Assembly (NCBI GenBank): GCA_017429505.1
Contig: JAFROW010000008.1
Span: forward strand, 62,001-126,000
Origin: Clostridia bacterium
Lineage (GTDB): Bacteria > Bacillota > Clostridia > TANB77 > CAG-508
DNA length: 64,000 nucleotides
Reading direction: 5' to 3'
In this document: piece by piece, positions 13,629 through 53,097 of the stretch
Layout: every line of letters begins with the position of its first letter
How positions within the stretch are numbered: the first letter of the stretch is position 1
The notes under the pieces: model-generated
The model's database searches: none
Told to the model about the DNA's origin: nothing
The model's input: only the letters and a program-made list of their open reading frames with translations
Position numbers and translations under genes: made by a program

Positions 13629-14333
13629 TCACGATTCTCTAAACTCTTCACTTAGTTTTCCTATTGCCTTTGTTTCTATTCTTGAAACATAAGAACGAGA
13701 AATTCCCATACTAGATGCAATTTCGTGTTGAGTTTTAGGCTTTTGTCCATTAAGGCCAAATCTTAGCTCAATAATCGTTCTTTCTCTATCTTTTAAAACT
13801 TCTTTCATTTTTTTGTAGAGCTTTTTAACTTTCATTTTTAAGTCTACAACCTCTTCTATACTTCTTTCATCATTTTCCAAAACTTCTTCTAAAGTAACTA
13901 CATTATCATCTTTGTCTTTTCCAATTGTATCATTTAAATAAACCTCTGCATTTAGTTTTTTTATAGATCTTAAATACATTAAAATTTCATTATCTATACA
14001 TCTTGAAACATATGTAGAAAGCCTTGCACCTTTGTCTACGTCAAAACTTTTTATTCCTTTTATAAGTCCAATTGTTCCAATTGAAAGCAAATCATCTTGG
14101 TCAACATTTGTATTTGAATACTTTTTACAAACATGTGCAACTAATCTTAAGTTTCGCTCTATAAGCAGGTTTCTTGCTTCTTCATCTCCTTCTTTCATTT
14201 TTATTAGTGCTTCTTTTTCTTCTTCTGCTCTTAATGGTTCAGGAAAAAGTGTACCTCCTGAAATATATCCTACTACAAAAATTGAGGTTTTTAAAAAACT
14301 CAAAAATCCTGCTAGGCAAATATTTGAAAACAT
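13629..14333 (-). CDS. sigK: Mother-cell sigma factor pro-SigK, uninterrupted
   Basis: I choose the ATG at 14333 because GGAGGTG lies nine bases upstream; an upstream in-frame ATG at 14351 would contain that site. The 234-residue product has a hydrophobic pro-sequence (FSNICLAGFLSFLKTSIFVVGY), then sigma region 2 (LLIERNLRLVAHVCKKY, then DLLSIGTIGLIKGIKSFD), region 3 remnants and region 4 (TQHEIASSMGISRSYVSRIE). SigK directs late mother-cell coat genes after removal of the pro-sequence at engulfment. No skin-type insertion splits it, in contrast to cotJC at 42 kb. A sporulation-type -10 lies upstream. Confidence 0.95.
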   Translation of the reverse strand: MFSNICLAGFLSFLKTSIFVVGYISGGTLFPEPLRAEEEKEALIKMKEGDEEARNLLIERNLRLVAHVCKKYSNTNVDQDDLLSIGTIGLIKGIKSFDVDKGARLSTYVSRCIDNEILMYLRSIKKLNAEVYLNDTIGKDKDDNVVTLEEVLENDERSIEEVVDLKMKVKKLYKKMKEVLKDRERTIIELRFGLNGQKPKTQHEIASSMGISRSYVSRIETKAIGKLSEEFRES

Positions 14334-14363
14334 AAAATCATGCACCTCCATATTTTCATAACA

Positions 14364-40953: not shown

Positions 40954-41219
40954 TATTTTTTCCTCCCTATATCTCTATAAATGAAAAATTATCTTTCACT
41001 CTCTCTTTTTCTTAAAATTTTATTTTTTTCGTTTTTATATTAATATAATACCACTAATATTTTTTTATTGCAATAATTATTTAAGAAATTATTTTTCTAC
41101 TTATAAATATAATCTATTAATTAAGTTATAATTTTTTTTCATATATTATCATCTTCTTTCACAAAATGTATTTTTTTGTCATATTATATACTAAACTAAT
41201 TAAAGGAGGAAAAAACGTG

Positions 41220-41588
41220 ATGAATCGCAGATGTAGAAGATGTTTTTGTATGAACAACAATAATCCACATTGTGTTAATCAAAATATGTTGGAAAAAGCT
41301 TGTCAAAACACAAATTTTCCTACAATGAATTATAACGAGAATTGTAATTGTGGTTTTGATGATGATAATGAAAAAGATGTTTTTCCAGAAAATCCAATGC
41401 TTGCACAAAGTTATGTTCCAATTCAATATATGAATGAAACATTCAAACCATGTATTGGTTTAGATAATGGAACTATTTATCCTGAGCTTGTAAGTCCTTA
41501 CTGCCCGGGAGACTCTATAAAAGACATTGAATTTTTAAGAAGAACAAATTCTATTGGAGAGGGGTGCAATAGTGATGGAAGAAGATAG
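41220..41588 (+). CDS. cotJA: Spore coat protein CotJA
   Basis: Start at the ATG 41220 (a GTG three bases earlier is possible) after AAAGGAGG. The 122-residue protein has a Cys/Asn-rich N-terminus and then the CotJA domain: PENPMLAQSYVPIQYMNETFKPCIGLDNGTIYPELVSPY. It is longer than Bacillus CotJA (about 82). It is first in cotJABC, transcribed in the mother cell under SigE in Bacillus, and is needed to bring CotJC into the coat. It overlaps cotJB by 14 bases. Confidence 0.9.
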   Translation: MNRRCRRCFCMNNNNPHCVNQNMLEKACQNTNFPTMNYNENCNCGFDDDNEKDVFPENPMLAQSYVPIQYMNETFKPCIGLDNGTIYPELVSPYCPGDSIKDIEFLRRTNSIGEGCNSDGRR

Positions 41589-41928
41589 AAACTGCAATTG
41601 TGAAAATATAGAAAATATTAATATGCAATTAAATATGAATATGGATATGAATTATAATTCTTGTGGTTGCAACGATAAAAATATGACTAGAAAAGAAATG
41701 CTTAAAAAGATTAAATGTTTAAGATTTGCAATAATCGAACTTGCTTTATATCTTGATACTCATCCAGATGATACTAAAGCTTTATGCCTACACAATAAGT
41801 ATAGCAAAGAGCTTAAAGAAATTTGTGATAAATATCAAAAGGTTTATGGACCTCTTACAATCGAATATCCATGTAATAAATGGAGATGGCTTGAAGAACC
41901 ATGGCCTTGGGAAGGAGGAATTAACTAA
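41575..41928 (+). CDS. cotJB: Spore coat protein CotJB
   Basis: 117 residues from the ATG at 41575 with GGAGAGGGG upstream. A low-complexity Asn/Met/Cys N-terminus (about 1-37) precedes the CotJB domain: LKKIKCLRFAIIELALYLDTHPDDTKALCLHNKYSKELKEICDKYQKVYGPLTI and the closing WRWLEEPWPWE. Its stop overlaps the cotJC start (TAATG), so the genes are translationally coupled. Confidence 0.92.
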   Translation: MEEDRNCNCENIENINMQLNMNMDMNYNSCGCNDKNMTRKEMLKKIKCLRFAIIELALYLDTHPDDTKALCLHNKYSKELKEICDKYQKVYGPLTIEYPCNKWRWLEEPWPWEGGIN

Positions 41929-42347
41929 TGTGGACTTATAATAAAGTTTTACAATATCCTGTTAATATTAAATGTACTGACCCTCGTTTAGCTAAAGTTA
42001 TAATAAGCCAATATGGAGGTCCAGATGGTGAACTTGCTGCTTCTCTAAGATATTTGTCTCAAAGATTTGGTATGCCTGACCAAACTTCTAAAGCAATATT
42101 AAATGATATTGGTACAGAAGAATTAGCTCACCTAGAAATGGTTGGTTCTATAGTTCACCAATTAACTAAAAATGCTACAATTGAAGAATTGGAAAAAGCA
42201 GGCTTAGCGCCATACTATACAGACCATGGGGTAGATGTATACCCTGTTTCAGCTACAGGAGTTCCATTTACTGCAGCATATATTGCAGCTAAAGGTGACC
42301 CAATAGCAAACTTACAAGAAGATTTAGCGGCAGACGTTGCACCTTGA
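41928..42347 (+). pseudogene. cotJC: cotJC 5' half, interrupted by a mobile element
   Basis: The first 135 codons are CotJC, a manganese-catalase-family coat protein: WTYNKVLQYPVNIKC, GGPDGELAASLRYLSQRFGMPD and the ligand helix IGTEELAHLEMVGSIVHQL. After A135 the frame runs four codons into the element (DVAP) and stops. GGAGG precedes the ATG. The 3' part is at 52894-53097. Joined at GCAGA, the parts restore 200 residues (B. subtilis CotJC is 189). The state is probably developmentally reversible rather than dead. Confidence 0.93.
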
Positions 42348-42357
42348 AAGATACAAC
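42327..42357 (+). other. attL of the cotJC-interrupting element
   Basis: The host side is GCGGCAGA (42327-42334); the crossover lies in GCAGA (42330-42334), shared with attR. The element-side half-site is CTTG-N5-TACAAC (42343-42357), the mirror image of GTTGTA-N5-CAAG in attR. The symmetry centre predicts a GA core dinucleotide at 42333-42334. Confidence 0.8.
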
Positions 42358-42833
42358 ATCAATAAAATATAGTAAAATGAACCAATACAAGATTTTTGAA
42401 TAAACACCAATATAAAAAATGGATTTTTATTTTTTATCGTAAAATAATAGTAAAGGAGAATAGAGTATAGTAGCCTACTATACTAGGAGCATTGTCTATA
42501 AATGGCTATTTAGTAATGAATATAATATAATAAATAAGCACTTGGTTATGAATATCAAGTGTTATTTTAATACATCTCTGATGTATATATTGCTACTATA
42601 TAAATGAGTTTAATTGTTATGCAATAAAAACTCTTTACAGAATTTTAAATCTGTGCTCTTGACTAAAGAGGGCTACTGGAGAGATAATGTAAATAAGAGT
42701 GCTCTAAACAAATGATATAAAATTCAAGAAACATACGGATAAAACAAATACGGCTAGTAAATTCTAAAATCAGTTTTTAGCTGTTTTTATATGTTGATAT
42801 AGTAATTTATGGTAGAAAGGATTTTATAATGAA
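42348..42833. other. Non-coding left end of the element with a palindrome
   Basis: No gene is visible in 486 bases. At 42464-42484 a perfect inverted repeat has arms AGTATAGTAG and CTACTATACT around one C. CACTTG/CAAGTG (42539-42561) is a small stem. Related AGTAT...ATACT palindromes lie at 50442 and 50992. This could hold an origin or a site for an accessory recombination protein. Confidence 0.5.
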
Positions 42834-43466
42834 ATGAAGCAAATAACTGATGTAATAAAACTAATTACTGACAAATATCTTGATAGAGTAAATGTTGTTT
42901 TAAATAAAGAAATGCTTTCATTAGAATATTTATATTATATAAATGGAGAGCAAGATGTGTTTAAAATAGTACAAATAACAGAAAATGATAATCAACTCTA
43001 TGCTAAAATATATCCAGAAACAACAGAGGAAATTATAACAATTAAAGATTTAGAAGATATATTTACAGGATTTGAGAAAGAACTATTTATAAATAAATCA
43101 AAAAATCAAATTTCAGATAGTAAAATAGAACAAGAACAATATCAAGAATATTTGAATATGATAGATAAAATTTTCAATATTGATGAAGATAAAGATATTG
43201 ATTTTAGTAAATTGAAATTTTTAAATATAATATTTGAACATTTTGCAGAAGATTTGTACTCTCCTAGTGAAAAGCATAACAAATTAAGAAGAGAGTATAT
43301 AGATATTACAAATGAATTTAGAGAATCATTAACAGATGGACAAACAGCAATATATGAAAAAATATCAGATTTAAATAGTAAAATGACAGAAGAAATAGAA
43401 CAGCAGCTATTCATATTTGGTTTTGTAATTGGTTGCAGAATAAAGATGGATTTGGAGATGAAATAA
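42834..43466 (+). CDS. DUF6809-like protein, long form
   Basis: 210 residues; AGAAAGG lies 13 bases upstream of the ATG. The C-terminal 65 residues (LRREYIDITNEFRESLTDGQTAIYEKISDLNSKM...QQLFIFGFVIGCRI) fit the DUF6809 pattern of small helical proteins common in clostridial mobile elements. The N-terminal 130 residues are acidic and unassigned. The next gene encodes a short paralogue four bases downstream. The function is unknown. Confidence 0.6.
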   Translation: MKQITDVIKLITDKYLDRVNVVLNKEMLSLEYLYYINGEQDVFKIVQITENDNQLYAKIYPETTEEIITIKDLEDIFTGFEKELFINKSKNQISDSKIEQEQYQEYLNMIDKIFNIDEDKDIDFSKLKFLNIIFEHFAEDLYSPSEKHNKLRREYIDITNEFRESLTDGQTAIYEKISDLNSKMTEEIEQQLFIFGFVIGCRIKMDLEMK

Positions 43467-43469
43467 TAT

Positions 43470-43832
43470 ATGTGTTTAAAAAATAAAGTAGAAGTAAATG
43501 ATGAACTAATAATACAAAAAAGTATAGACAATTTTAATAATGATTTTAAAACGAAGATTAAAAAAGATAATATCAGTTTTTTAGTAAGTATGTATTATAA
43601 CTTTGTAAATTTATTAAGTACAGACCAAGTAACATCAAGAGATGATTTAAAGAAACTTGTAGATGTAGAAGAAAGATTAAATAAATCTTTTAATAAAGAG
43701 CAACAAGAACTATTCACAGAGTGGAACGATTTACAAGACAAGATGTTTGATGAATATGAAAAGAGAGCCTTTATTTTTGGCTATTGTACTTGTAGTGAAT
43801 TAAATATAGAAAGTAAAATGAGTAGGAACTAA
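43470..43832 (+). CDS. DUF6809-like protein, short form
   Basis: 120 residues. The C-terminal half (LKKLVDVEERLNKSFNKEQQELFTEWNDLQDKM...RAFIFGYCTCSEL) shares the helix-helix-F-x-x-GY/F pattern with its neighbour. It starts three bases after the neighbour's stop, so the two are coupled. Its last codons form half of a bidirectional terminator (43817-43846). The function is unknown. Confidence 0.6.
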   Translation: MCLKNKVEVNDELIIQKSIDNFNNDFKTKIKKDNISFLVSMYYNFVNLLSTDQVTSRDDLKKLVDVEERLNKSFNKEQQELFTEWNDLQDKMFDEYEKRAFIFGYCTCSELNIESKMSRN

Positions 43833-43846
43833 AATTCTTACTCATT
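43817..43846. terminator. Bidirectional terminator
   Basis: AATGAGTAgGAA and TTCtTACTCATT pair around an A-rich loop and overlap the ends of two convergent genes; CTCTTTTT follows. Confidence 0.65.
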
Positions 43847-44069
43847 CTCTTTTTAATAATTCATCTATATTACATTCTAACGCTTCACAAAGTTCGTCCA
43901 AATCTTGATATAGGACTGATTTATTCTCTTGATTTATCATATGTTGAAAGTTTGTGTAATTCATCAAAGGTTCCCCTTTTTTGGCACGAATATTATTAAG
44001 TGAATTAAATAATTTATATTTGCTGTAACCTCTGTTGTTCATAATTTGAATAGCATTAAGTTTTAGCAT
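43842..44069 (-). CDS. XRE-family transcriptional regulator
   Basis: 75 residues. It has an HTH of the Cro/C1 type: LNAIQIMNNRGYSKYKLFNSLN, then MNYTNFQHMINQENKSVLYQDLDELCEALECNIDELLKRE, where the last block is the typical end of HTH_26 regulators. It is divergent from the sorting-signal protein at 44269 and probably controls that promoter and its own. No peptidase or sensor domain. Confidence 0.8.
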   Translation of the reverse strand: MLKLNAIQIMNNRGYSKYKLFNSLNNIRAKKGEPLMNYTNFQHMINQENKSVLYQDLDELCEALECNIDELLKRE

Positions 44070-44210
44070 AATAATACCCCCATTCTCTTAATATTTGAAT
44101 ACAGTTTATAAAATATTCACTCAAATAATAATTCTTTTAAAAATACTGTTTTAACTATTTACATTTTTTGAAATTTGTGCTAAATTAGCATTAGATAATT
44201 TATAGAATAA

Positions 44211-44217
44211 TGTCGAA
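44211..44217 (+). promoter_or_regulatory. Perfect Spo0A-box word upstream of the surface-protein gene
   Basis: TGTCGAA lies 52 bases before the start codon of the 44269 gene. The 7-mer can occur by chance, but its placement in the only divergent promoter region of the cargo is suggestive. Confidence 0.3.
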
Positions 44218-44268
44218 TTAAATTCTATAAATTATACTTCAACGAAAGAGAAAGGGGGTGAATGAGAG

Positions 44269-45666
44269 ATGACAAGAATTAAAAGCAAGATGAAATTTTT
44301 GATAATGTTAGGCCTAGCATTATTAGCTGTATGTATATTTAATACATCAGTAAATGCAACTACTAATGAAGAAATTAAAAATATAATACCAGATACGATA
44401 AACCTGGATATTCCAGAAGAAGAATATAATAAAGCCCAAACATCAATAGCAAACAAAGTTAAAGAAATTATTGCAAATAGTAATTTGGAAGATAAAGATA
44501 ATCTAAATGTATCAGCAGATTATAATGTGTTATATTTTTATGAAGCAACTGTTAATGTAGGTTCAACACAAAAAGAAGTAAATATTTTATTTAATAACAC
44601 AAACAATGTAGATAAAGAAGAAGAACAATATATTAAGAACTTAAAAATAGATAATCCTAAATATATTGAAACTGATTTGAATTATTTAGCTGTTAATAAA
44701 GAAAATAAAGAACAATGGAGTTATTGTGAAAAAAAATTAAATGAATATTTTACTAAAAAAGTAAATGATAGTAATATTAAATTAGTTGCTGTGATTGGCC
44801 AAGGTGCTGGAAATGGAATAAATTTAGGAGCTACGAATGTATATTTGTATATTTTTAAAAATGGAAAACTATATGATATAAGAGATATTGAAAATATAAC
44901 ATTTATTCCAGTAGTTGATGTTCCAGCTAATCTAACTGACAAAGAACTTAATGACTATGTTATTAAAGAAGTAAATAAACTATACAATTATGATGAATAC
45001 GGATATGCAAGTATTTCTAAAAAAGCAGATAATATTTATACATTAAATTCAGAGAGTGAAGATAAAGAGTTTTATAATTGTGAGATTATGGTAAAAAGAG
45101 AAAAAGCAACAGCAGTTACAGATACAGATGCAGATACTAAAATTAAACTTGATACTACATCAGCAGTAGTTCCAAAAGGTACAACATTAGAAGCGAAAGA
45201 AGTTAAAGATGGAGCAACATATAATACAGTTGTTAAAGCAGTAGAAAATGAAGTGGATAAATTTGTGTTATATGATATTTACTTAATGAATAACAATGCC
45301 AAAATCCAACCAAATGGAAAAGTTAAAGTTTCAATACCTGTTCCAGATGGTTATGATACTTCTAAAATAGTTGTATATAGAGTAGAGGAAAATGGAACAA
45401 AGACTAAATTAGATGTAACTGTAAAAGATGGCTATATTACATTTGAAACAGACCACTTTTCAAATTATGTTGTTGGAGAAGAAAAAACAACAGTATCAGA
45501 AGAAGCAACAAAAGAAACAACAGATACATCAAAGGCATCTAATACTACAAAAAGAGAATTAGATAATACACCTAAAACAGGAGCAGAAACTAATATCATA
45601 ACAGTAATATCTTCAATAATTAGTTTAGTATCAGCAGGGGCAGTTGCATTAGTAAGAAAATTTTAG
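44269..45666 (+). CDS. Cell-wall-sorted surface protein (sortase substrate)
   Basis: 465 residues; GGGGGTG lies about ten bases before the ATG. The signal peptide (about 1-31) ends near SVNA. Residues 33-280 have no family I know. Residues about 290-410 are a beta domain with PKGTTLEAKEV and KVSIPVPDGYDTSKIVVYRVEENG, seen in clostridial surface proteins. A Thr/Lys-rich linker leads to the sorting signal: D-N-T-P-K-T-G, a 20-residue hydrophobic stretch and R-K-F. The sortase gene follows 67 bases on. They form a dedicated pair, likely a host-benefit cargo. Confidence 0.85.
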   Translation: MTRIKSKMKFLIMLGLALLAVCIFNTSVNATTNEEIKNIIPDTINLDIPEEEYNKAQTSIANKVKEIIANSNLEDKDNLNVSADYNVLYFYEATVNVGSTQKEVNILFNNTNNVDKEEEQYIKNLKIDNPKYIETDLNYLAVNKENKEQWSYCEKKLNEYFTKKVNDSNIKLVAVIGQGAGNGINLGATNVYLYIFKNGKLYDIRDIENITFIPVVDVPANLTDKELNDYVIKEVNKLYNYDEYGYASISKKADNIYTLNSESEDKEFYNCEIMVKREKATAVTDTDADTKIKLDTTSAVVPKGTTLEAKEVKDGATYNTVVKAVENEVDKFVLYDIYLMNNNAKIQPNGKVKVSIPVPDGYDTSKIVVYRVEENGTKTKLDVTVKDGYITFETDHFSNYVVGEEKTTVSEEATKETTDTSKASNTTKRELDNTPKTGAETNIITVISSIISLVSAGAVALVRKF

Positions 45667-45669
45667 TAT

Positions 45670-45711
45670 AAATGGGTAGATATACATTTCAAATGATACC
45701 TACCCCATTTT
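45670..45711 (+). terminator. Attenuator-like hairpin between substrate and sortase
   Basis: AAATGGGTAG and CTACCCCATTTT pair around a loop of about 20 bases. It probably lowers sortase expression relative to its substrate. Confidence 0.5.
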
Positions 45712-45732
45712 AGTATAAAGGAAGTTATAGAT

Positions 45733-46512
45733 ATGACAAAACATACAGATAACAATAAAGGATTTAAAAGAATAGTTTTAATATTATTATCCATTCTGAT
45801 TATATTAAGCGTCATATTGTATGTGAAAATAAAATTAGACGAATACAGAGAAAATAAGAGTCAAAGAGAAGTATCGCAGGTTTTAGATATAATAGATATT
45901 CCAGAAGAAGATATAACACCAGTTGTTACAGAAAGAATGTTAAAAGTAAAGAAACTAAAACAAGAGAATAATGATATTGTAGGCTGGTTACAAATTGATG
46001 GTACTAATATAAATTACCCTGTTTTACAAAGCAAAGATAATGATTACTATCTAAAACATAATTTTAAACACAAATATATTTCAACAGGTTCAATATTTTT
46101 AGACAAAGATTATGATTGGAATAAACCAAGTTCAAATTTATTGATATATGGACACAGAAATAAAGTTGGGTTGATGTTTGATGAGTTAATTAAGTATAAA
46201 GATGAAGCATTTTACAAGGAGCATAAGACTATTAGATTTACAACAGCAGATGAAGATGCTGAATATGAAATAATGTCAGCATTTAAGTCACGAGTATATT
46301 ATACAGATGAAACAGATGTGTTTAGATACTACTATTTCATTGATGCAGAAGACAAAGAAGAATATGATGAGTATGTAACTAATTGTAAGAAATCCAGCTT
46401 ATATGATACAGGATTCACAGCAAAATATGGTGAACAATTACTTACATTATCTACTTGCGATTATGAAGTAGAAAATGGAAGATTTGTAGTAGTTGCAGTT
46501 AAAAGAAAATAA
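45733..46512 (+). CDS. srtB: Class B sortase
   Basis: 259 residues. An N-terminal membrane anchor (about 13-32) leads to the catalytic domain: GWLQIDGTNINYPVLQSKDNDYYLKHNF, His141 in IYGHR, Cys242 in LTLSTCDY and Arg250 in GRFVVVAV, the triad needed for transpeptidation. The long NINYPV...DYYLKHNF insert marks class B. It should cut the T-P-K-T-G signal of the protein encoded upstream and link it to peptidoglycan. Clostridial class B enzymes are known to accept PXTG-type signals. Confidence 0.93.
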   Translation: MTKHTDNNKGFKRIVLILLSILIILSVILYVKIKLDEYRENKSQREVSQVLDIIDIPEEDITPVVTERMLKVKKLKQENNDIVGWLQIDGTNINYPVLQSKDNDYYLKHNFKHKYISTGSIFLDKDYDWNKPSSNLLIYGHRNKVGLMFDELIKYKDEAFYKEHKTIRFTTADEDAEYEIMSAFKSRVYYTDETDVFRYYYFIDAEDKEEYDEYVTNCKKSSLYDTGFTAKYGEQLLTLSTCDYEVENGRFVVVAVKRK

Positions 46513-46514
46513 TC

Positions 46515-46547
46515 AAGTTCGCTAATTATAAAGTTAGTGGACTTTTT
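46515..46547 (+). terminator. Terminator of the sortase gene
   Basis: AAGTTCGCTAA and TTAGTGGACTT pair (two G-U pairs in RNA), followed by TTTTT. Confidence 0.7.
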
Positions 46548-46616
46548 CTATTGCACTTATTCCATTACTAAAAATTTTAAATAGTAAGATATTATCAGAA
46601 GGAGAGTGTAGTAAAA

Positions 46617-46790
46617 ATGGAAGAAATACAATATATAGAAGATATTCAGGATTTAACTATAAAAGCATTACTTGATGCATATTTAGATGATTATGAAGAT
46701 ACATATAGAAAGCAGAGAGATGAAATTATAGTAATAGATGATAAACAAAAATTACAAGAATTATTGGTAGATTTGATAAAAACTGCATAA
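46617..46790 (+). CDS. Small acidic protein, unknown
   Basis: A 57-residue frame starting MEEIQYIEDIQDLTIKALL, with AGAAGGAG 12 bases upstream. It is acidic and predicted all-helical. It stands between the sortase and resolvase modules with a terminator downstream (46917). There is no known family. Confidence 0.5.
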   Translation: MEEIQYIEDIQDLTIKALLDAYLDDYEDTYRKQRDEIIVIDDKQKLQELLVDLIKTA

Positions 46791-46916
46791 TATCATCGTT
46801 GAAGAAGCACCACAATCTAATTTAAAGCATTTTTCTAACCACAGATAACAAGTTATATGTCTTGAATTTTAATACAATCTAACAAAGCATAACTCTATCA
46901 TTTTTTATACATTCCA

Positions 46917-46955
46917 AGAGAAGATTGATTTAATTACTTATCTTCTCTTATTTTT
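46917..46955 (+). terminator. Intrinsic terminator
   Basis: AGAGAAGAT and ATCTTCTCT around a 14-base loop, then TATTTTT. The gap 46791-47105 holds otherwise only the inverted repeat at 47007. Confidence 0.75.
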
Positions 46956-47006
46956 ATGTATTCATAAAAGTATAGGATTCTGTACATTGTAAAATCATTA
47001 TTTTAT

Positions 47007-47042
47007 ATATTCAAAAAGGTTGGTATATTATTTTTTGAATAT
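47007..47042. promoter_or_regulatory. 11-base inverted repeat upstream of the small resolvase
   Basis: ATATTCAAAAA and TTTTTGAATAT are perfect arms with 14 bases between, 64 bases before the resolvase start. This geometry fits a resolvase dimer site or operator. Confidence 0.5.
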
Positions 47043-47105
47043 TCACAAATTGGATTGGACATTAGTGGACAAAGGAGGTATAATGTTTATAAGAGGTGAT
47101 TAACT

Positions 47106-47708
47106 ATGACGAAAACAGTAGCATATATTAGAGTTTCTTCCAAAGACCAGAATTTAGATAGGCAACTTGCAGTATTAAATGCTCTTGGAATTGAAGAAAA
47201 ATATATTTATCAAGATAAACAAAGTGGTAAGGATTTTGAAAGAGTAGGCTATATGTATATGAAAAAATCATTAGAACCAGGAGATACATTAGTTATCAAG
47301 GAGTTAGACAGGTTAGGTAGAAATCAAATGGAACTAAAAAAAGAGTGGGAATATTTTAGAGATAATGAAATAAATGTTAGAGTATTAGATATGCCAGCAC
47401 TTAATATAAATTATGATGATGAAAATATAAAACCTCTTGTGAAGATGATAAATAATATTATATTTGAGATAATGAGTTGGAAAGCAGAAAATGAAAGAGA
47501 AACAATAAAAAAAAGACAAGCAGAAGGGATTGCAACAGCAAAAGCAAATAATGTTAAATTCGGTAGGCCAAAGACCAAAATTCCAGATAATTTTATTGGG
47601 ATATGCACCAGATGGAGAAATGGTGAAATAACAGCAACAGATGCTATTATATTAACAGGAATGAAAAGAACTAATTTCTATAAACAAGTAAAATCATTAA
47701 ATTTATAG
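47106..47708 (+). CDS. Small serine resolvase/invertase
   Basis: 200 residues. The catalytic domain begins TVAYIRVSSKDQNLDRQ with Ser11 as nucleophile and contains ELDRLGRNQ with the conserved arginines; the long E helix follows. The C-terminal HTH (about 160-198, KIPDNFIGICTRWRNGEITATDAIILTGMKRTNFYK) fits the Hin/resolvase type. It may resolve multimers of the replicating circle, invert a segment or assist the large recombinase. An AGGAGG precedes the ATG. Confidence 0.9.
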   Translation: MTKTVAYIRVSSKDQNLDRQLAVLNALGIEEKYIYQDKQSGKDFERVGYMYMKKSLEPGDTLVIKELDRLGRNQMELKKEWEYFRDNEINVRVLDMPALNINYDDENIKPLVKMINNIIFEIMSWKAENERETIKKRQAEGIATAKANNVKFGRPKTKIPDNFIGICTRWRNGEITATDAIILTGMKRTNFYKQVKSLNL

Positions 47709-47720
47709 TAAGGAGAGCCT

Positions 47721-47969
47721 ATGAATAAACTAGAAATTGAAATTGCAAGTTTTAAAGAAGAAGTATTAACTACTGGAATGACTATGTCTATGTATCTAAA
47801 TAAAAAGAAGAGTTTAATAAACAAAATAGAATGTTTTAGTAATAAGAGTTTAATGTTTTTTCAGCAACTTTATTTTATAGATTTGATAAATCGACAACAG
47901 TATTTAGATATGAAGATTAAAGTAGATAAATCAAGAAAGCATTATAAATCAATGTTATCAATTATATAA
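47721..47969 (+). CDS. Small helical protein, unknown
   Basis: 82 residues, start 12 bases after the resolvase stop with AAGGAG in between, so it is in the same operon. Predicted helical and basic towards the end (DKSRKHYKSML). I cannot match it to any family. As a resolvase partner it might be an accessory or regulatory factor. Confidence 0.5.
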   Translation: MNKLEIEIASFKEEVLTTGMTMSMYLNKKKSLINKIECFSNKSLMFFQQLYFIDLINRQQYLDMKIKVDKSRKHYKSMLSII

Positions 47970-47976
47970 GTGAATT

Positions 47977-48005
47977 AGGAGAATAGAAATTGCATCTATT
48001 CTCCT
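47977..48005. terminator. Bidirectional terminator with an embedded stop codon
   Basis: AGGAGAATAG and CTATTCTCCT around ten bases, between convergent genes; the stop codon of the leftward gene is in the stem. Confidence 0.75.
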
Positions 48006-48766
48006 TTATCATCTTCAAATAAATTTTCTATAAATGCATTTAATACACCACGAAATGCTCGAACTATGTTATCTTTGGTTTCATTGAAACTTGGAATTGG
48101 TTTATCACCCATATTTAGTTTGCCTTTATCTTCAATTTCCTGTATATATTGTATGAATTCTTTATAGGACATTTTTTTTGTGTGGTCATTATATTTCTTT
48201 ATGTGCAGTAATTCGCCTATGTTTTCATCTATCTCTTTTTCAAAAGTATTTAAAAAACTTTTTTGATGTATAAGATAATTTATTATTTTTGAATATGTGT
48301 TCTCTAAATATTCTCCATCTTTAAGAAGACTTGGCAAGTTTTTAAAACTCATTTCATTATAACTTTCTTCGTCAATACCAATCTGCTTTAATAAAACAAG
48401 TCGAAAATCTTTATGGTATTCCTTGGGAACAATATCTACAACCTTACATTTAAAAACTTTTGCAAATTTAGTATATACATTATATTGTTTAATAGATGGT
48501 GTGCTAGTTCCTAGATAATATTTCTTAATAGTGTCCCAATCTACACCTGTTGCCTTTTCTAATGCAGCATAAACTTCTTGTTTATATGCTTGTCTGTATG
48601 TTTCTACTTCTTTATTTAATTCTTTTTTTCTCTTTTTCTTTTGCTGGTTTGCAATTTTTAATTTATTTACTTCAGAATCAACATATATGCGTAATACCAT
48701 ATTAAATGGGTAATGATTATAGTTTCCTTTTTTTGACAAATTCTCATTTTTGGTCTTTTTACTCAT
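47996..48766 (-). CDS. Putative DNA-binding regulator of the element
   Basis: 256 residues. Residues about 60-110 (EVYAALEKATGVDWDTIKKYYLGTSTPSIKQYNVYTKFAKVFKCKVVDIVP) look like a divergent Cro/C1 HTH, ending with the usual cytoplasmic-repressor sequence F-x-C-x-V-x-D-I-V. The rest is helical and unassigned. It is divergent from the Rep module across a region with three palindromes (48781-48950), so it is a candidate repressor of replication. The N-terminal 60 residues are highly basic. Confidence 0.6.
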   Translation of the reverse strand: MSKKTKNENLSKKGNYNHYPFNMVLRIYVDSEVNKLKIANQQKKKRKKELNKEVETYRQAYKQEVYAALEKATGVDWDTIKKYYLGTSTPSIKQYNVYTKFAKVFKCKVVDIVPKEYHKDFRLVLLKQIGIDEESYNEMSFKNLPSLLKDGEYLENTYSKIINYLIHQKSFLNTFEKEIDENIGELLHIKKYNDHTKKMSYKEFIQYIQEIEDKGKLNMGDKPIPSFNETKDNIVRAFRGVLNAFIENLFEDDKGE

Positions 48767-48780
48767 AACTACTCCTTTGG

Positions 48781-48950
48781 AGCAAAATGATTTGTTTTAA
48801 AAAATGAACCAAATTTTGTGATATACATTATATAGTTCATTGCAGATGAGCCACCATTTTGCTTTGAATAAATTTAATAAAAATGCAAGAGTGGTCTTCC
48901 AAACTATACTCTTGCGTTGATTGACAGTCCACTAACACAAGTATATGTGT
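48781..48950. promoter_or_regulatory. Palindrome-rich control region between repressor and Rep module
   Basis: AGCAAAAT (48781-48788) and ATTTTGCT (48856-48863) are inverted. GCAAGAGT (48885-48892) and ACTCTTGC (48908-48915) form a stem. TTGACA at 48921-48926 is a likely -35 whose -10 region coincides with ACACA-AGTATA-TGTGT (48935-48950). This could be an operator set or an origin for Rep. Confidence 0.5.
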
Positions 48951-49047
48951 TTATTAAGCAGACTTTATATAAATTCTCTATACATATATATACTATATTT
49001 TATGGAATTTGTCAATCTCCTAAATCAATATTAAAGGGGGGGTAACA

Positions 49048-49392
49048 ATGATTGCAGTAGGAAATTTTACATTTAAGAGTTTCAAAGAGAGAGAAGCAGG
49101 TAGTTTTACAAATATTCAAACTGGTGAAGTTATTGAATATACAGCAAGTCATATATTGAAATTTGATGAAGAACTTGAAGACGGAGATATTCGTGAAAGA
49201 AAAGCAAAAGTTGAATTAGATAACCACGAACTGATACAAAAATTATTGAAAGTTAAATCATATCAACCTATAACTCTCAAATTTAAAGTTAATCTATGCA
49301 AAGATGGAAGTTTTGGTTTTGTAAAACTTATAGATGCAATAGTTCCAGAAAATGAAAAACAAAAAAATCAAGAAGAAAAATCAATACAATAA
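49048..49392 (+). CDS. Putative single-stranded DNA-binding protein of the Rep module
   Basis: 114 residues starting after AAAGGGGGGG. The sequence is beta-rich (FTNIQTGEVIEYTASHILKFDEEL, then PITLKFKVNLCKDGSFGFVKLIDAIV) with an acidic Lys/Gln/Glu tail, as in small OB-fold ssDNA-binding proteins. It lies 82 bases before an HUH Rep. Inoviruses and related rolling-circle replicons pair Rep with such a protein. The assignment rests on position and composition, not on a motif. Confidence 0.45.
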   Translation: MIAVGNFTFKSFKEREAGSFTNIQTGEVIEYTASHILKFDEELEDGDIRERKAKVELDNHELIQKLLKVKSYQPITLKFKVNLCKDGSFGFVKLIDAIVPENEKQKNQEEKSIQ

Positions 49393-49474
49393 TTTTATAT
49401 TTTGTATTATAGATTAACTAGATACAAATAAGAAACATTAGGGTGTAAGAATTTGAGTTAAGGAGTGGTGAAAA

Positions 49475-50359
49475 ATGTCTAGTGTATTTTTTCAAGATGG
49501 AGAAAATTATAGAATTGATAGGAGCAAAAAGATTAAGATAACAAGATATGATGTGTCTGGTGATGCAGAAATTATTGATACATCGAATAAAGTTAATGGT
49601 TTGAAAGACATAGAGAAAATTAGTAAGAATATGTACTTTGATAAAAAAAAGAATAGATATGTAAGATACAAATCAGATGATGAAAAAACAGAAGATAGTT
49701 TAAGGAAGAGTATGAAAGTGCTTAATAATAAGTTAAAGAACAATTTTAATGGTGGCAGTAATGAATTGTTTATAACATTAACAACAACAGTTCCAGTTAC
49801 AGATGTAGCAGAAATCAAATTATATTTTGAACAATTCTGGGAGAAATTAAAGTCAATATACAATGGACTAGAATATGCTTATGTACTTGAATGGCAGGAG
49901 CAAAGAAACAGTTGGCATTTTCATTTATTACTTAAAGATATAAAAAACCCTGTGTTATATATTCCAAATTCTAAAATAGAACTTTTATGGGGTAAGGGTT
50001 ATACAAAGACAAGTAGAGTTTCAGCAGACCTTAAATATAATAGCATAGATGAAGAAGAAATATTGAAATATGATGACAGAGATATAAGAAATACAGTACA
50101 GATATTAGGAATAAAAAGAGTAATTTCCTATATGTGCAAAATGAAGAGTAAGAAATCTATACCACGATATGTTAGATGCTTTGAAACAAGCAGAAATCTA
50201 AAATCTCCACAAATAGAAGTTAAAACATATGGAGATATATATGATGAAATGATTGAAAATAACTATCAGTTGAGTAAAGAAAGAACAACTCTTGTTAGAG
50301 ATGTAAAAACAAAAGCAATAGTTAATAAGATTAAAAAGGAAGTTTGGAGTATAAAATAG
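49475..50359 (+). CDS. rep: Rolling-circle replication initiator (HUH endonuclease)
   Basis: 294 residues. The three Rep motifs are present in order: motif 1 ELFITLTTT (about 97-105); motif 2 with His148 and His150 in NSWHFHLLLKD, the metal-binding HUH; and motif 3 with Tyr219 and Lys222 in ISYMCKMKSK, the nicking tyrosine. No helicase domain. The layout fits the G2P/plasmid Rep group. It would nick a double-strand origin and start leading-strand synthesis on the excised circle. A candidate origin lies just downstream (50422-50478). Confidence 0.88.
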   Translation: MSSVFFQDGENYRIDRSKKIKITRYDVSGDAEIIDTSNKVNGLKDIEKISKNMYFDKKKNRYVRYKSDDEKTEDSLRKSMKVLNNKLKNNFNGGSNELFITLTTTVPVTDVAEIKLYFEQFWEKLKSIYNGLEYAYVLEWQEQRNSWHFHLLLKDIKNPVLYIPNSKIELLWGKGYTKTSRVSADLKYNSIDEEEILKYDDRDIRNTVQILGIKRVISYMCKMKSKKSIPRYVRCFETSRNLKSPQIEVKTYGDIYDEMIENNYQLSKERTTLVRDVKTKAIVNKIKKEVWSIK

Positions 50360-50421
50360 AGATTTAAACTCTTGTAAATACTTTTTAAAATACAGCAGAT
50401 AAATAGAATTTAGATGATAAC

Positions 50422-50478
50422 AGCAAGGACAAGCAATATGTCAGTATAATACATTGATATACTGCTTCTCCCCTTGCT
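50422..50478 (+). other. Candidate double-strand origin downstream of rep
   Basis: Nested inverted repeats: AGCAAGG/CCTTGCT outside (50422-50428, 50472-50478) and CAGTAT/ATACTG inside (50442-50447, 50459-50464). A cruciform in the gap after a Rep gene is typical of nick sites; the exact nick cannot be read. Confidence 0.45.
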
Positions 50479-50514
50479 TATAATATGAAATAAGATGAAA
50501 AGGAGAAATTAAAA

Positions 50515-50838
50515 ATGATATTCGGTTATGTTAGAAAAGCCAAAAATGAAGATTTAGGAGAAAGTTTAGAAAAACAAAAACACGAGTTATTAAAGTTAAA
50601 TGACAAGGTAGATTATATATTTGAAGAATATGCGAATGGACTAGATGTAAACAGACCAGAATTAAACAAAATGCTGGAAACTGTTACAGATGGAGATGTA
50701 ATAGTTACAACAGATATAAGCAGACTAACAAGAGATATAAAGCAACTTAATGATATAGTAGAATTAGCAAAAAAGAATAATATAAAACTTCAAGTTGGAA
50801 CTACAATATGGGACAATACAGATAGTATGTATATTTAA
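50515..50838 (+). CDS. Resolvase-domain protein without catalytic serine
   Basis: 107 residues, only the N-terminal resolvase domain. It aligns from MIFGYVRKAKNEDLGESLEKQ to TTDISRLTRDIKQLND. Where resolvases have Y-x-R-V-S, this reads Y-V-R-K-A, so the nucleophile is Ala9. The arginines of S-R-L-T-R-D (70, 73) remain. There is no DNA-binding domain. AAGGAG lies seven bases before the ATG. It cannot cut DNA but could bind another serine recombinase and regulate it. Confidence 0.75.
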   Translation: MIFGYVRKAKNEDLGESLEKQKHELLKLNDKVDYIFEEYANGLDVNRPELNKMLETVTDGDVIVTTDISRLTRDIKQLNDIVELAKKNNIKLQVGTTIWDNTDSMYI

Positions 50839-51063
50839 TATGATAACAAGCAGAAGATGAAATATGATTTATAGTGATTAGATTAACAGAGATGATAGTA
50901 AATATAGTAGTAATAAATCAAGAAGTAGTTTAGGAAGTTATAAATAAAAGATAATAAATTTAGAAGTAATAAAGGTATTAAATAATGTCGTAGTATAATA
51001 TACTGTTGATATATACACATAAATCTTAAATATATGAATAAAAATTAACAAGGGGTATTTAAG

Positions 51064-51174
51064 ATGGAAAATATAATTTGTGAAAATATATTTGTTTCAG
51101 CAGATGAAACAGAAAGATGTCAGACATTTAACGATGTATGGCAGATGATAGTTAATTTAATGATAAATAGTTAA
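51064..51174 (+). CDS. 36-residue protein directly upstream of the integrase
   Basis: The frame starts MENIICENIFVSADETERCQ and ends VWQMIVNLMINS. AAGGGG lies eight bases upstream. It is the last gene before the integrase and of a size compatible with a recombination directionality factor or leader peptide. It has no recognisable domain. Confidence 0.5.
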   Translation: MENIICENIFVSADETERCQTFNDVWQMIVNLMINS

Positions 51175-51193
51175 TTTATGATAAACAGTTTAC

Positions 51194-51239
51194 ACGAACC
51201 AGTATTTTGGTGTAAAATGTTTATCGAGTATTGGTTCGT
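51194..51239 (+). promoter_or_regulatory. Inverted repeat in the integrase leader
   Basis: ACGAACCAGTA (51194-51204) and TATTGGTTCGT (51229-51239) match at ten of eleven positions across 24 bases, 30 bases before the integrase ATG. TTTTG follows, so it may be an operator or attenuator. Confidence 0.5.
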
Positions 51240-51269
51240 TTTGCTGTTTCTTTTAGGGGGAATTGTAAA

Positions 51270-52874
51270 ATGAATATAACAAATAATGTAGCAAGTTCAC
51301 AAACTAATGTGGACAAAAAGAAACCAAAAGTTGCAATATATTGCAGACTTTCCGAAGAAGATAGAAACAAGGAGAATGAAGAAGATGATAGTAGAAGCAT
51401 TCAAAATCAAAAACTAATGTTGACTGAATATGCAATAAGACAAGAATGGGACATACAAGGAATTTATAGTGATGATGACTATACCGGAGCAGACAGAGAT
51501 AGACCCGATTTTAATAAAATATTAAATTTAGCAGAAAAAAGACAAATTGATATTATATTGTGTAAGAGCCAAAGTAGATTTACAAGGGAACTTGAATTAG
51601 TGGAAAGATACATTCATAACCTATTTATTGAATGGAACATAAGATTTGTAGGATTAGTTGATAATGCAGATACTAATGTAAAAGGTAATAAAAAATCCAG
51701 ACAAATAAATGGATTAGTTAATGAATGGTATTTGGAAGATATGTCTGAAAATATAAAATCAATTTTGCAGAGTAAAAGAGAACAAGGACTACATACTGGT
51801 GGTCTTGCATTATATGGCTATCTAAAAGACCCAGACAAAAAAGGTCACTTGATTATTGACCCAGTTGCAGCAGAAGTTGTAAGAGAAGTGTTTAATTTGT
51901 ATAATCAAGGTATTGGAAAAACAGCAATAGCAAGAGAATTAAATAATAGAGGTATCCCCAACCCTACCCAATATAAACTTCAAAGAGGTATTGCATATAA
52001 AACACCTAAAACCAGATTAGGAACATTATGGAAATATTCAGCAATAGCATCTATGTTAAAAAATGAGATGTATATTGGAAATATGGTACAAGGCAGATAT
52101 GGTAGCATTTCATATAAAAGTAAGAAGAATAAGCCAAAACCAAGAGAACAATGGGTTATTGTTGAAGGAACACACGAAGCAATTATTGATATGGATTTAT
52201 GGAATAGTGTTCAAAATAAAATAAATAAGAATTTCAAGCCATTTTTAAATGGTCATATAGGTGTCTTTGCAAAAAAATGCAAATGTGAACATTGTGGCTA
52301 TATATTAAAATCTAGCAAAAGTCATAATGACAGATATTTAAGATGCCCCACCAGACAAGTCAACAAAAATGAATGTGTAGGTTGTTTCATTTCACAGAAA
52401 GTGCTAGAAAGAATTGTATTAAAAGAAATAAATGAAATGATAGACAAATATTTGAATAAAGATAAGTTGGAAGAAAGCATTATTGTAGATAACATCAGGA
52501 GTAAGAAAGATAAGTTGGAAGAAGAAATTGCACAGTATCAAGCCAATCTTAATAAACAATCAAAAGCAATAAAAGATTTATATCTTGATAAAGCAAATGG
52601 CGTTATAACAACTGAACAGTTTACTGAATTTAATGAACATTTTAAAGAAGAGAAAGAAAATATTGAGAAATTGCTGAAACAGAAGAAAAGTGAACTTATT
52701 AAATTTAAGGATGAACAAGACATATTAAAATCTAAAAGACAGTTATTAGAGAAGTACATAAATGTAACAGAGCTTTCCAGAGAGATGATGGATAATCTGA
52801 TTGATTATATTACAGTTGGAGTTAAAGACCCTATTACAAAAAAGAAACCCATCAAAATATACTGGAAATTTTAA
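51270..52874 (+). CDS. Large serine recombinase (integrase/excisionase)
   Basis: 534 residues from the ATG at 51270, which has AGGGGG nine bases upstream; a TTG start at 51231 lies inside the inverted repeat. The catalytic domain begins KPKVAIYCRLSEEDR with Ser28 and has SQSRFTRELELVERY. The recombinase domain (about 180-290) has LYGYLKDPDKKGHLIIDPVAAEVVREVFNLYNQG. The zinc-ribbon domain has CKCEHCGYIL and a later CVGC. A long coiled coil follows (about 410-500). The stop lies two bases before the attP half-site. This enzyme should integrate at cotJC and excise with a directionality factor. Confidence 0.96.
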   Translation: MNITNNVASSQTNVDKKKPKVAIYCRLSEEDRNKENEEDDSRSIQNQKLMLTEYAIRQEWDIQGIYSDDDYTGADRDRPDFNKILNLAEKRQIDIILCKSQSRFTRELELVERYIHNLFIEWNIRFVGLVDNADTNVKGNKKSRQINGLVNEWYLEDMSENIKSILQSKREQGLHTGGLALYGYLKDPDKKGHLIIDPVAAEVVREVFNLYNQGIGKTAIARELNNRGIPNPTQYKLQRGIAYKTPKTRLGTLWKYSAIASMLKNEMYIGNMVQGRYGSISYKSKKNKPKPREQWVIVEGTHEAIIDMDLWNSVQNKINKNFKPFLNGHIGVFAKKCKCEHCGYILKSSKSHNDRYLRCPTRQVNKNECVGCFISQKVLERIVLKEINEMIDKYLNKDKLEESIIVDNIRSKKDKLEEEIAQYQANLNKQSKAIKDLYLDKANGVITTEQFTEFNEHFKEEKENIEKLLKQKKSELIKFKDEQDILKSKRQLLEKYINVTELSREMMDNLIDYITVGVKDPITKKKPIKIYWKF

Positions 52875-52876
52875 TT

Positions 52877-52901
52877 GTTGTACTATTCAAGTAGCTGCAG
52901 A
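52877..52901 (+). other. attR of the cotJC-interrupting element
   Basis: The element-side half-site is GTTGTA-N5-CAAG (52877-52891), mirroring attL, then GCTGCAGA (52894-52901) with the shared GCAGA at 52897-52901 and predicted GA core at 52900-52901. Confidence 0.8.
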
Positions 52902-53097
52902 ACAAAAAGCACGTGCAACTTATGAAAAGCTTATTGACTTATGCCGTGATAACCCTGATGTTCTTGACCCACTTAAATTCTTACGTCAAAGAGAAATTGT
53001 CCACTTCCAAAGATTTGGCGAGGCTCTCCGTGGAATTCAAGATAGACTTGCGTGTAAAAAAATGTATATGAATGATATAAAAAATCAAACTATATAA
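52894..53097 (+). pseudogene. cotJC: cotJC 3' half
   Basis: From AAEQKARATYEKLI onward the frame encodes the last 67 residues of CotJC, including the second ligand helix FLRQREIVHFQRFGEAL. No start codon of its own or ribosome-binding site is suitable; it is open upstream into the end of the element. Frame and sequence join exactly with the 5' half at GCAGA. Terminator at 53131. Confidence 0.93.

What the first reader, a model, noticed from the sequence alone, without database searches (positions are those of the whole stretch)
42327..52901. Mobile element splits the spore-coat catalase gene cotJC and can restore it exactly on excision
The 5' half (41928-42334) and 3' half (52894-53097) of cotJC share GCAGA at the breakpoints. 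Joining them there restores an in-frame 200-codon CotJC without adding or losing a residue. A large serine recombinase ends two bases before attR. This is the arrangement of skin/sigK, SPbeta/spsM and vfbin/spoVFB, where excision in the mother cell repairs a sporulation gene. I do not know of a characterised case in cotJC with this cargo. sigK in the same window is intact, so the organism has placed its switch at a coat-enzyme gene.
Basis: partly seen in the sequence, partly recalled or inferred. Interest (0 to 1): 0.92.

Follow-up and report, generated by a model that had tools for sequence, protein, structure and literature searches.

The report
Spore-coat gene split by mobile elements
A mobile DNA element sits inside a gene for a spore-coat enzyme and could rejoin it exactly by leaving, and in related gut bacteria the same gene is broken this way at several places, sometimes two or three at once, which suggests the gene is stitched together from pieces when spores form.

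Summary
cotJC is interrupted in codon 135-136 by a 10.6-kb element with a large serine recombinase (LSR) near attR. Joining at GCAGA gives a 200-aa CotJC in register with intact relatives; no second cotJC was found. Of 210 genomes of the genus, 67 have a full-length cotJC match and 126 only partial ones (hand count; some are contig ends or frameshifts). Breaks inside contigs are confirmed in 59 of them and in 11 other genomes (corrected). They fall at five codons, each with its own LSR clade (one site has two systems); ten genomes have breaks at two or three sites. Reconstructed attP sites are palindromic. Orphaned halves show near-normal purifying selection. Best reading: skin/gin-like gene-intervening elements, excised most likely in the sporulating mother cell. 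Excision and its timing are inferred, not shown. Against it: elements move between species, no sporulation-sigma promoter was recognised, and 6 of the 59 genomes show only one piece. The paper searches gave no interrupted cotJC.

The parts
41166..41588 (+). cotJA
   Evidence: PF11007 E 1.9e-11
41563..41928 (+). cotJB
   Evidence: PF12652 E 1.3e-27
41928..42334 (+). 5' part of cotJC (codons 1 to 135/136); reads on to a stop at 42347
   Evidence: PF05067 E 1.4e-40; 89% identical to the CotJC of L003
42330..42334 (+). GCAGA, left copy of the recombination core (attL centre)
42335..42370 (+). element-side arm of attL (end approximate); with the attR arm it forms the palindromic attP
42834..43466 (+). 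element cargo, DUF6809 protein
   Evidence: PF20648
43470..43832 (+). element cargo, second DUF6809 protein
   Evidence: PF20648 at its cut-off
44269..45666 (+). element cargo, LPXTG-like surface protein (465 aa)
   Evidence: weak NF053819 match under its cut-off; sorting-like C-terminus seen in the sequence; no Pfam match
45733..46512 (+). element cargo, class B sortase
   Evidence: TIGR03064 177 bits, over cut-off
47106..47708 (+). small serine resolvase/invertase
   Evidence: PF00239, phrog_125
47996..48766 (-). element ORF of unknown family (256 aa)
   Evidence: no match in Pfam, NCBIfam or PHROGs
49048..49392 (+). element ORF of unknown family (114 aa), before Rep
   Evidence: no match
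49475..50359 (+). rolling-circle replication initiator-like protein
   Evidence: PF23343, phrog_3419
50515..50838 (+). short resolvase-like ORF
   Evidence: phrog_125
51064..51174 (+). 36-aa ORF just before the LSR; candidate recombination directionality factor
   Evidence: conserved in 3 of 3 close site-D elements; small ORFs found by pattern before the LSR in 8 A, 4 B and 2 C elements; no family match. Function inferred
51270..52874 (+). large serine recombinase (site-D lineage, 534 aa)
   Evidence: PF00239 + PF07508 + PF13408, phrog_95 E 9.8e-105, nearest solved chain TnpX E 9.3e-11, tree
52897..52901 (+). GCAGA, right copy of the recombination core (attR centre)
52897..53097 (+). 3' part of cotJC (codons 135/136 to 200, stop)
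   Evidence: PF05067 E 2.6e-10; in register with intact relatives
13629..14351 (-). sigma-K/E-like gene, uninterrupted
   Evidence: TIGR02846 298.1 bits, just under cut-off 298.65

Best explanation
A mobile element with a TnpX-type large serine recombinase has integrated by site-specific recombination at a conserved site in cotJC (Mn-catalase of the inner spore coat). Shown at sequence level: the LSR, palindromic attP arms, a short shared core, and an exact in-frame join in codon 135-136. Inferred: the LSR, probably with the 36-aa ORF before it as directionality factor, excises the element as a circle and restores cotJC. Also inferred: excision happens when cotJC is needed, in the sporulating mother cell, whose chromosome is discarded, so the germ line keeps the element at little cost. 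The window is one case of a lineage-wide habit: cotJC is a shared docking gene, cut at five codons by six LSR systems, up to three at once, and must then be assembled by several independent excisions.
For: Exact in-frame join. 37 junction rows (35 distinct; L046/L130 and L082/L160 are the same) were examined for in-register joins only: 36 match intact CotJC without gap in 27-40 of 40 residues around the join, L215 was mis-anchored (21 of 40); 30 of 37 rows, L215 among them, have a shared core of 5 or more bases, seven only 2-4. Palindromic attP: 26 of 33 junctions reached by 0 of 300 shuffles, the window's by 4 of 300, three without signal. Each site has its own LSR clade. Orphaned 3' parts: 0 stops in 2448 codons of 48 loci that aligned over codons 140-190; with all 76 fetched pieces that reach codon 145, 1 stop in 8497 aligned residues. 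dN/dS of 3' exons 0.107 (0.086-0.128) in 42 split genomes, 0.075 (0.052-0.099) in 20 intact ones. 53 of the 59 confirmed genus genomes have two or more cotJC matches. SpoIVA in 197 of 210 genomes and in the own genome. Known systems work this way (PMC5595907; PMC5025042).
Against: No read, PCR or culture evidence of an excised form or circle. LSR and host distances do not correlate for A1, B and C (Mantel 977, 313 and 367 of 999 reach the observed value; A2 10 of 999; D has 3 genomes only), so elements move horizontally and insertions may be recent. dN/dS is somewhat higher in split than in intact genes for both exons (3': 0.107 and 0.075; 5': 0.084 and 0.059; intervals overlap). The counts of stops favour pieces that still align. 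Six of 59 confirmed genomes show only one piece (G026, G106, G146, G202, G207, G211); G106 is 96% and G146 93% complete, so a lost half is possible there. No sigma-E/K promoter recognised; the conserved site-A leader reads TTGATT-N17-TATAAT, a vegetative type (by eye). The small ORF as directionality factor is a guess. In C. difficile, cotJC-type genes are reported to be dispensable for coat formation (passages of PMC11222575 and PMC12122855), so loss of function may be tolerable.
Confidence: 0.62

Rival explanations
1. Selfish integrative elements use conserved codons of a dispensable coat gene as attB. The gene is simply off in carriers and comes back only when the element is lost; there is no developmental excision.
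For: Horizontal exchange; cargo mostly unrelated between elements; the same site used by LSRs of viral contigs and by a 164-kb segment in MS4; 17 of 210 genus genomes have no cotJC match at all; six of 59 confirmed genomes show one piece only; weak phenotypes reported for cotJC-type genes.
Against: Between 28% (59 of 210, confirmed) and 60% (126 of 210, partial matches only) of genus genomes carry a broken cotJC, yet the orphaned exons keep dN/dS near that of intact genes; taken as a mixture of constrained and neutral evolution, the point estimates allow about 3.5% neutral (interval ends about 8%). Lasting loss at that prevalence should leave decayed halves, unless insertions are recent or carriers are dead ends.
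Confidence: 0.21
2. Restoration by stochastic, reversible excision in vegetative cells (active lysogeny or bet-hedging), not tied to the mother cell.
For: Vegetative-type promoter and hairpin in front of the site-A small ORF and LSR (by eye); yin in yabG was found excised at all time points in culture (PMC10747680, passage).
Against: In skinCd the LSR is also constitutive and the directionality factor gives mother-cell timing (PMC5025042), so such a promoter does not exclude developmental control.
Confidence: 0.14
3. Assembly artefact or mixed strains in metagenome assemblies.
For: The named relatives are mostly metagenome bins; a number of breaks coincide with contig ends (16 ends listed as unresolved).
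Against: 37 junction rows lie inside single contigs with conserved att arms and palindromes; bacterium MS4 has both halves on one 1.08-Mb contig.
Confidence: 0.02

Closest known systems
gin element in gerE, Bacillus cereus ATCC10987 (PMC5595907; abstract, introduction and discussion read)
   Same: Non-phage element with several serine recombinases splits a mother-cell gene at a short shared core; excision restores it in frame
   Different: Other gene and other LSR; shown experimentally there and only inferred here; one element in one gene, not several sites
skinCd in sigK, Clostridioides difficile (PMC5025042; passages including the abstract seen)
   Same: Large serine recombinase with a small directionality factor; LSR from a sigma-A promoter
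   Different: Target is a sigma factor; CD1234 is controlled by sigma-E and SpoIIID; no such control shown here
SPbeta in spsM (PMC4191935; search listing only), vfbin in spoVFB (named in passages of PMC10747680), yin in yabG (PMC10747680; passages seen)
   Same: Sporulation gene interrupted by a recombinase element and rejoined
   Different: Prophage or prophage-like; the window's element showed no phage structural gene among the ten ORFs scanned
Tn4451/TnpX-type integrative elements (family recalled)
   Same: Nearest solved relative of the LSR is TnpX
   Different: Here the target is one coding sequence and its frame is preserved
Heterocyst elements of cyanobacteria (nifD, fdxN/XisF; recalled)
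   Same: Excision in a terminal cell repairs a gene; the LSR has a sub-threshold match to the XisF model (87 bits, cut-off 375), second to CcrB (102 bits, cut-off 900)
   Different: Different cell type and host phylum
phi027 prophage beside a CotJC-like gene (CDR20291_1465/cotG), C. difficile R20291 (PMC11222575, PMC12122855; passages seen)
   Same: Prophage attachment site adjacent to a cotJC homologue
   Different: Described as adjacent to attR, not as splitting the gene; no reconstitution claimed in the passages seen

Membership tests
Sporulation gene-intervening elements (skin, SPbeta, vfbin, gin, yin) | A sporulation gene is split by a mobile element | tested here: met
   cotJC in operon with cotJA and cotJB
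Sporulation gene-intervening elements (skin, SPbeta, vfbin, gin, yin) | Element encodes a site-specific recombinase, in the cases read a serine recombinase | tested here: met
Sporulation gene-intervening elements (skin, SPbeta, vfbin, gin, yin) | Short shared core at both ends; joining restores the frame exactly | tested here: met
Sporulation gene-intervening elements (skin, SPbeta, vfbin, gin, yin) | Directionality factor encoded in the element | tested here: inconclusive
   Conserved 36-aa ORF before the LSR is a candidate only
Sporulation gene-intervening elements (skin, SPbeta, vfbin, gin, yin) | LSR or directionality factor under a mother-cell sigma factor | tested here: inconclusive
   No promoter recognised by eye; sigma-70 scan of 50700-51400 about what shuffles give (9 against 6.5, sd 2.3); no formal sigma-E/K scan was run
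Sporulation gene-intervening elements (skin, SPbeta, vfbin, gin, yin) | Excision during sporulation yields the joined gene | not testable with these tools
   Needs DNA or RNA from sporulating cells
Sporulation gene-intervening elements (skin, SPbeta, vfbin, gin, yin) | Orphaned half stays functional (purifying selection) | tested here: met
   for the lineage as a whole; age of insertions unknown
Prophage | Phage structural genes in the element | tested here: not met
   PHROGs matches among ten element ORFs are recombinases/invertases and a rolling-circle Rep only; shorter ORFs not scanned
Integrative mobilizable or conjugative element | Relaxase or transfer genes | tested here: inconclusive
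   Rolling-circle Rep-like protein found, no relaxase among the ORFs scanned; several ORFs unassigned

The most novel reading that the evidence does not exclude
cotJC in this lineage is a bacterial gene in pieces: up to four coding segments (perhaps more, if codon 176-177 is a sixth site) separated by up to three unrelated recombinase elements, assembled by site-specific DNA excisions in the terminal mother cell, while the germ line passes on the broken version. The gene serves as a shared docking site for competing elements because it is needed only in a cell whose chromosome is discarded.
Probability: 0.5. Interest if true: 0.92.

Novelty: new variant of a known kind. Interest (0 to 1): 0.82.

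Why it matters
Gene-intervening elements of spore formers are reported from sigK, spsM, spoVFB, gerE and yabG (introductions of PMC5595907 and PMC10747680). Here one coat gene is interrupted in at least 59 of 210 genomes of a genus, by six recombinase systems at five codons, with breaks at two or three sites in ten genomes. That turns single cases into a natural experiment on why mobile elements settle in mother-cell genes: the discarded-chromosome idea predicts this, and the many insertions make it testable. It also gives a set of recombinases with short defined sites inside conserved codons, and a named genome (bacterium MS4) that holds both halves on one contig.

Tried and rejected
Vertical inheritance of the elements: tested with distances and Mantel tests and not supported for A1, B and C. 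A strong age argument therefore could not be made, only the dN/dS bound.

Sporulation-sigma promoter upstream of the LSR: looked at alignments for A, B, C and D by eye and ran a sigma-70 scan; nothing convincing. No formal sigma-E/K scan.

Family search for the small ORFs (sub-threshold matches only) and a viral-contig search with the site-A one: nothing. In the phage collection, LSR matches were all under 60% identity (626 records).

Counts mended on checking. The first classification gave 73 genomes, 61 of the genus. I drop G101 and G135 (their 'site A' ends are CGGN frameshifts; G135 also has a second partial copy left uncertain) and G299 (a second partial copy): 70 genomes, 59 of the genus. 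Per site: E 2, A 39 (42 less G010, G101, G135), B 25, C 7 (8 less G299), D 9. G010 keeps only its site-C break. G089's A and D breaks are on different contigs and gene copies, so it is not counted as nested. L117 (G171, second site-D type) and L171 (G148, site B) were resolved by eye and are not added. These loci were fetched because they showed pieces, so 70 is not a prevalence. Ten genomes have breaks at two or three sites: in eight a middle piece bounded by two breaks is seen (G324, G214, G149, G029, G167, G087, G321, G339); in G074 and G161 the breaks are on separate contigs and nesting is inferred. The figure of 67 full-length genomes is a hand count; two (G144, G133) carry an internal TAA.

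Odds changed on checking: best explanation from 0.65 to 0.62 and the selfish-element rival from 0.18 to 0.21, because the prevalence is better stated as 28-60% and six of 59 genomes show one piece only.
Full report
The window's cotJA-cotJB-cotJC operon is interrupted inside cotJC. The 5' part (41928-42334) and the 3' part (52897-53097) share GCAGA. Joined there, they give a 200-residue CotJC that lines up without a gap with uninterrupted CotJC of relatives. A search of the own genome found no other copy. The interposed 10,567 bases have the composition of the host (26.6% against 27.4% G+C). They encode a large serine recombinase (LSR) near attR, a 36-aa ORF before it, a small resolvase, a rolling-circle Rep-like protein, a class B sortase with an LPXTG-like surface protein, two DUF6809 proteins and unassigned ORFs. 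No phage structural gene was found among the ten ORFs scanned.

The surprise came from relatives. Of 210 genomes of the genus, 193 have a cotJC match; by my hand count 67 have it full length and 126 show only partial matches. Some of the 126 are contig ends or the CGGN frameshifts described under Noticed in passing. Partial matches recur in other genera of the family and order. I fetched loci with pieces and found breaks at five places: codon 33 (site E), 61-66 (A), 98-102 (B), 114-119 (C) and 134-136 (D). After the corrections under Tried and rejected, 70 genomes, 59 of them of the genus, have at least one break confirmed inside a contig: E 2, A 39, B 25, C 7, D 9. Ten have breaks at two or three sites. 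G149 has the gene in four pieces (A, B and C) on contigs C30 and C4; G339 (L187) has A and B on one contig. Three loci (L220 and viral L245, L246) end at codon 177 with alike flanking sequence, perhaps a sixth site; this was not counted.

Each site has its own recombinase. The tree puts A, B, C, D and E in separate supported groups, with B next to D, so the origins are not all independent; several other rows have long branches and unsure places. A second, unrelated pair of tandem LSRs (L116, L224) also uses site D, with a different attL. Sites E, A and D lie at or beside the codons for Glu35, Glu65 and Glu136, which I take from memory to be metal ligands of Mn-catalases (numbering; family match). 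Recombinases thus seem to have settled on very conserved codons.

The joins look like true att sites. I examined 37 junction rows (35 distinct), in-register joins only: 36 match intact CotJC without gap, L215 was mis-anchored; shared cores are 2-16 bases, 5 or more in 30 rows including L215. Circle junctions (attP) written from the two arms of 33 of these rows (L046, L082, L142, L145 left out) are palindromic: mean 16.0, 17.9 and 18.1 of 24 positions at A, B and C, 15.0 at D, 14.0 at E, against 10.4-10.8 in shuffles. attB is not palindromic at A, B and D (9.8-10.0), slightly so at E and C (11.5, 12.4). 26 of 33 exceed all 300 shuffles, the window's is reached by 4, L141 by 1, L078 by 5, L169 by 6, and three show no signal (L224 twice, L215).

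Do the halves still matter? Forty-eight orphaned 3' exons have no stop in 2448 codons and 46 5' exons none in 2622; these sets hold only loci that align over the whole stretch. Without that condition, 76 fetched pieces reaching codon 145 have one stop in 8497 aligned residues (a few loci are duplicates, and viral and MS4 loci are included). Nearest-neighbour dN/dS within the genus is 0.107 (0.086-0.128) in 3' exons of 42 split genomes and 0.075 (0.052-0.099) in 20 of the 67 intact ones; for 5' exons 0.084 and 0.059. As a mixture of constrained and neutral evolution this allows about 3.5% neutral. The weak point is age: LSR distances do not follow host distances for A1, B and C, so elements jump between species and any one insertion could be young. 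The argument rests on prevalence: a state seen in 28-60% of genomes that leaves almost no mark on selection is easiest to explain if the gene is restored when needed. Against it, 6 of the 59 confirmed genomes show one piece only.

The hosts look like spore formers. SpoIVA is present in 197 of 210 genomes, over the cut-off in 194, and in the own genome, with a sigma-K-like gene intact in the window. cotJC belongs to the sigma-E regulon of B. subtilis (PMC3416734, passage).

Outside the genus, six of eleven viral contigs whose LSR resembles the window's carry cotJC fragments with an end at site D. Bacterium MS4 has its two cotJC halves about 164 kb apart on one contig, same strand, with a site-D LSR ending beside attR and the core GCAGCAGA.

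How would it work? The LSR recombines attL with attR at the core. Excision by such enzymes needs a directionality factor, a small protein in the cases read (PMC5025042, PMC10747680). A small ORF of 36-70 aa precedes the LSR in those A, B, C and D elements where my pattern found one (17 of 35 elements) and is the natural candidate. Control is open. The site-A leader has a vegetative-type promoter and a hairpin before a T run (by eye). In skinCd the LSR is also made constitutively and the directionality factor gives the timing, so this neither proves nor excludes mother-cell control.

Comparison with what is known: sigK, spsM, spoVFB, gerE and yabG are the interrupted genes named in the papers read (PMC5595907, PMC10747680). 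Searches of the held open-licence library for cotJC with intervening element, integrative/serine recombinase, prophage and recombinase and related terms listed no report of an interrupted cotJC; of the listings I opened only the papers cited here, and one search showed 20 of 199. The nearest is phi027 beside a CotJC-like gene in C. difficile, described as adjacent. I therefore file it as a new variant of a known kind: same machinery, new target, and a pattern of many recombinases in one gene that I have not seen described.

Noticed in passing
L226, L227, L228, L229, L141, L165, L167, L087, L100 (cotJC, near codons 30, 62 or 67); own genome L234 (carboxypeptidase): Apparent +1 frameshifts in otherwise conserved genes where a Gly codon GGN is written CGGN (9 of 9 cotJC cases looked at). 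In 55 family loci, 23 of 328 in-frame CGG codons (7.0%) sit at a +1 open-frame switch against 0.6% for other codons; the -1 control gives 3 of 328; AGG is next at 2.9%. CGG is the rarest sense codon there. None found by this scan in the window itself. Looks like CGGN read as glycine.
   Followed up: partly
L280 1501-1574 (G000:C11:10767-10837): A divergent tRNA-Gly whose anticodon TCC is followed by G (TCCG, the reverse complement of CGGA) with a weak anticodon stem, loop of 7 or 8 depending on pairing; the ordinary tRNA-Gly(TCC) in L260 has TCCA. No tRNA-Arg(CCG) among the 30 tRNA matches of the genome, but other expected tRNAs are missing too. A candidate four-base-reading tRNA; an LSR lies about 1.1 kb away.
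   Followed up: partly
L234 (G000:C13, about 42356-42790) and L257 (G000:C8, from about 73185): A D,D-carboxypeptidase gene (PF00768, dacB/dacF-like) of the same genome appears in two pieces on two contigs, the 5' piece ending beside tandem LSRs. Possibly a second interrupted sporulation gene; the pairing of the pieces is by eye.
   Followed up: partly
Genus genomes, e.g. G072, G087, G106, G119, G156, G026, G205: SpoIVA comes in two or three matches without a near-full-length one in about 30 of 210 genomes; contig breaks, CGGN frameshifts or further interruptions could cause this.
   Followed up: no
L239/L240, L252/L253 (bacterium MS4, G346:C17): cotJC halves about 164 kb apart on one contig, core GCAGCAGA, LSR ending beside attR: a named genome that could be tested.
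   Followed up: yes
L241-L246: Six of eleven viral contigs with a site-D-like LSR carry cotJC fragments at the site-D boundary.
   Followed up: partly
L220, L245, L246: 3' pieces of cotJC that end at codon 177 with alike sequence after it: a possible sixth site.
   Followed up: partly
L111, L115, L116, L117, L223, L224, L087: A second site-D attL type (..AGTGCA..), in L116 and L224 with two tandem LSRs unrelated to the window's.
   Followed up: partly
Upstream of LSR-A, e.g. L146, L135, L230: Conserved leader with TTGATT-N17-TATAAT followed by a hairpin and T run before the small ORF: possible attenuator controlling the recombinase (by eye).
   Followed up: no
L130, L174, L145 (LSR-B) and L062 (LSR-C site): LSR genes broken into two frames in the middle; in L062 the break is at a CGGA, so the recombinase itself may depend on the CGGN reading. 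Not checked for L130, L174 and L145.
   Followed up: no
G089 (L111, L169), G135 (L167), L066, G299 (L218): Genomes or loci with two cotJC copies or partial tandem/inverted copies; strain mixture or duplication.
   Followed up: no
Phage-collection records MT839049, MT839280, MT839831 and MT835881: Unannotated records from human fecal samples hold cotJC pieces ending near site A (residues 1-65/68) or starting at site D (132-194); junctions not looked at.
   Followed up: no
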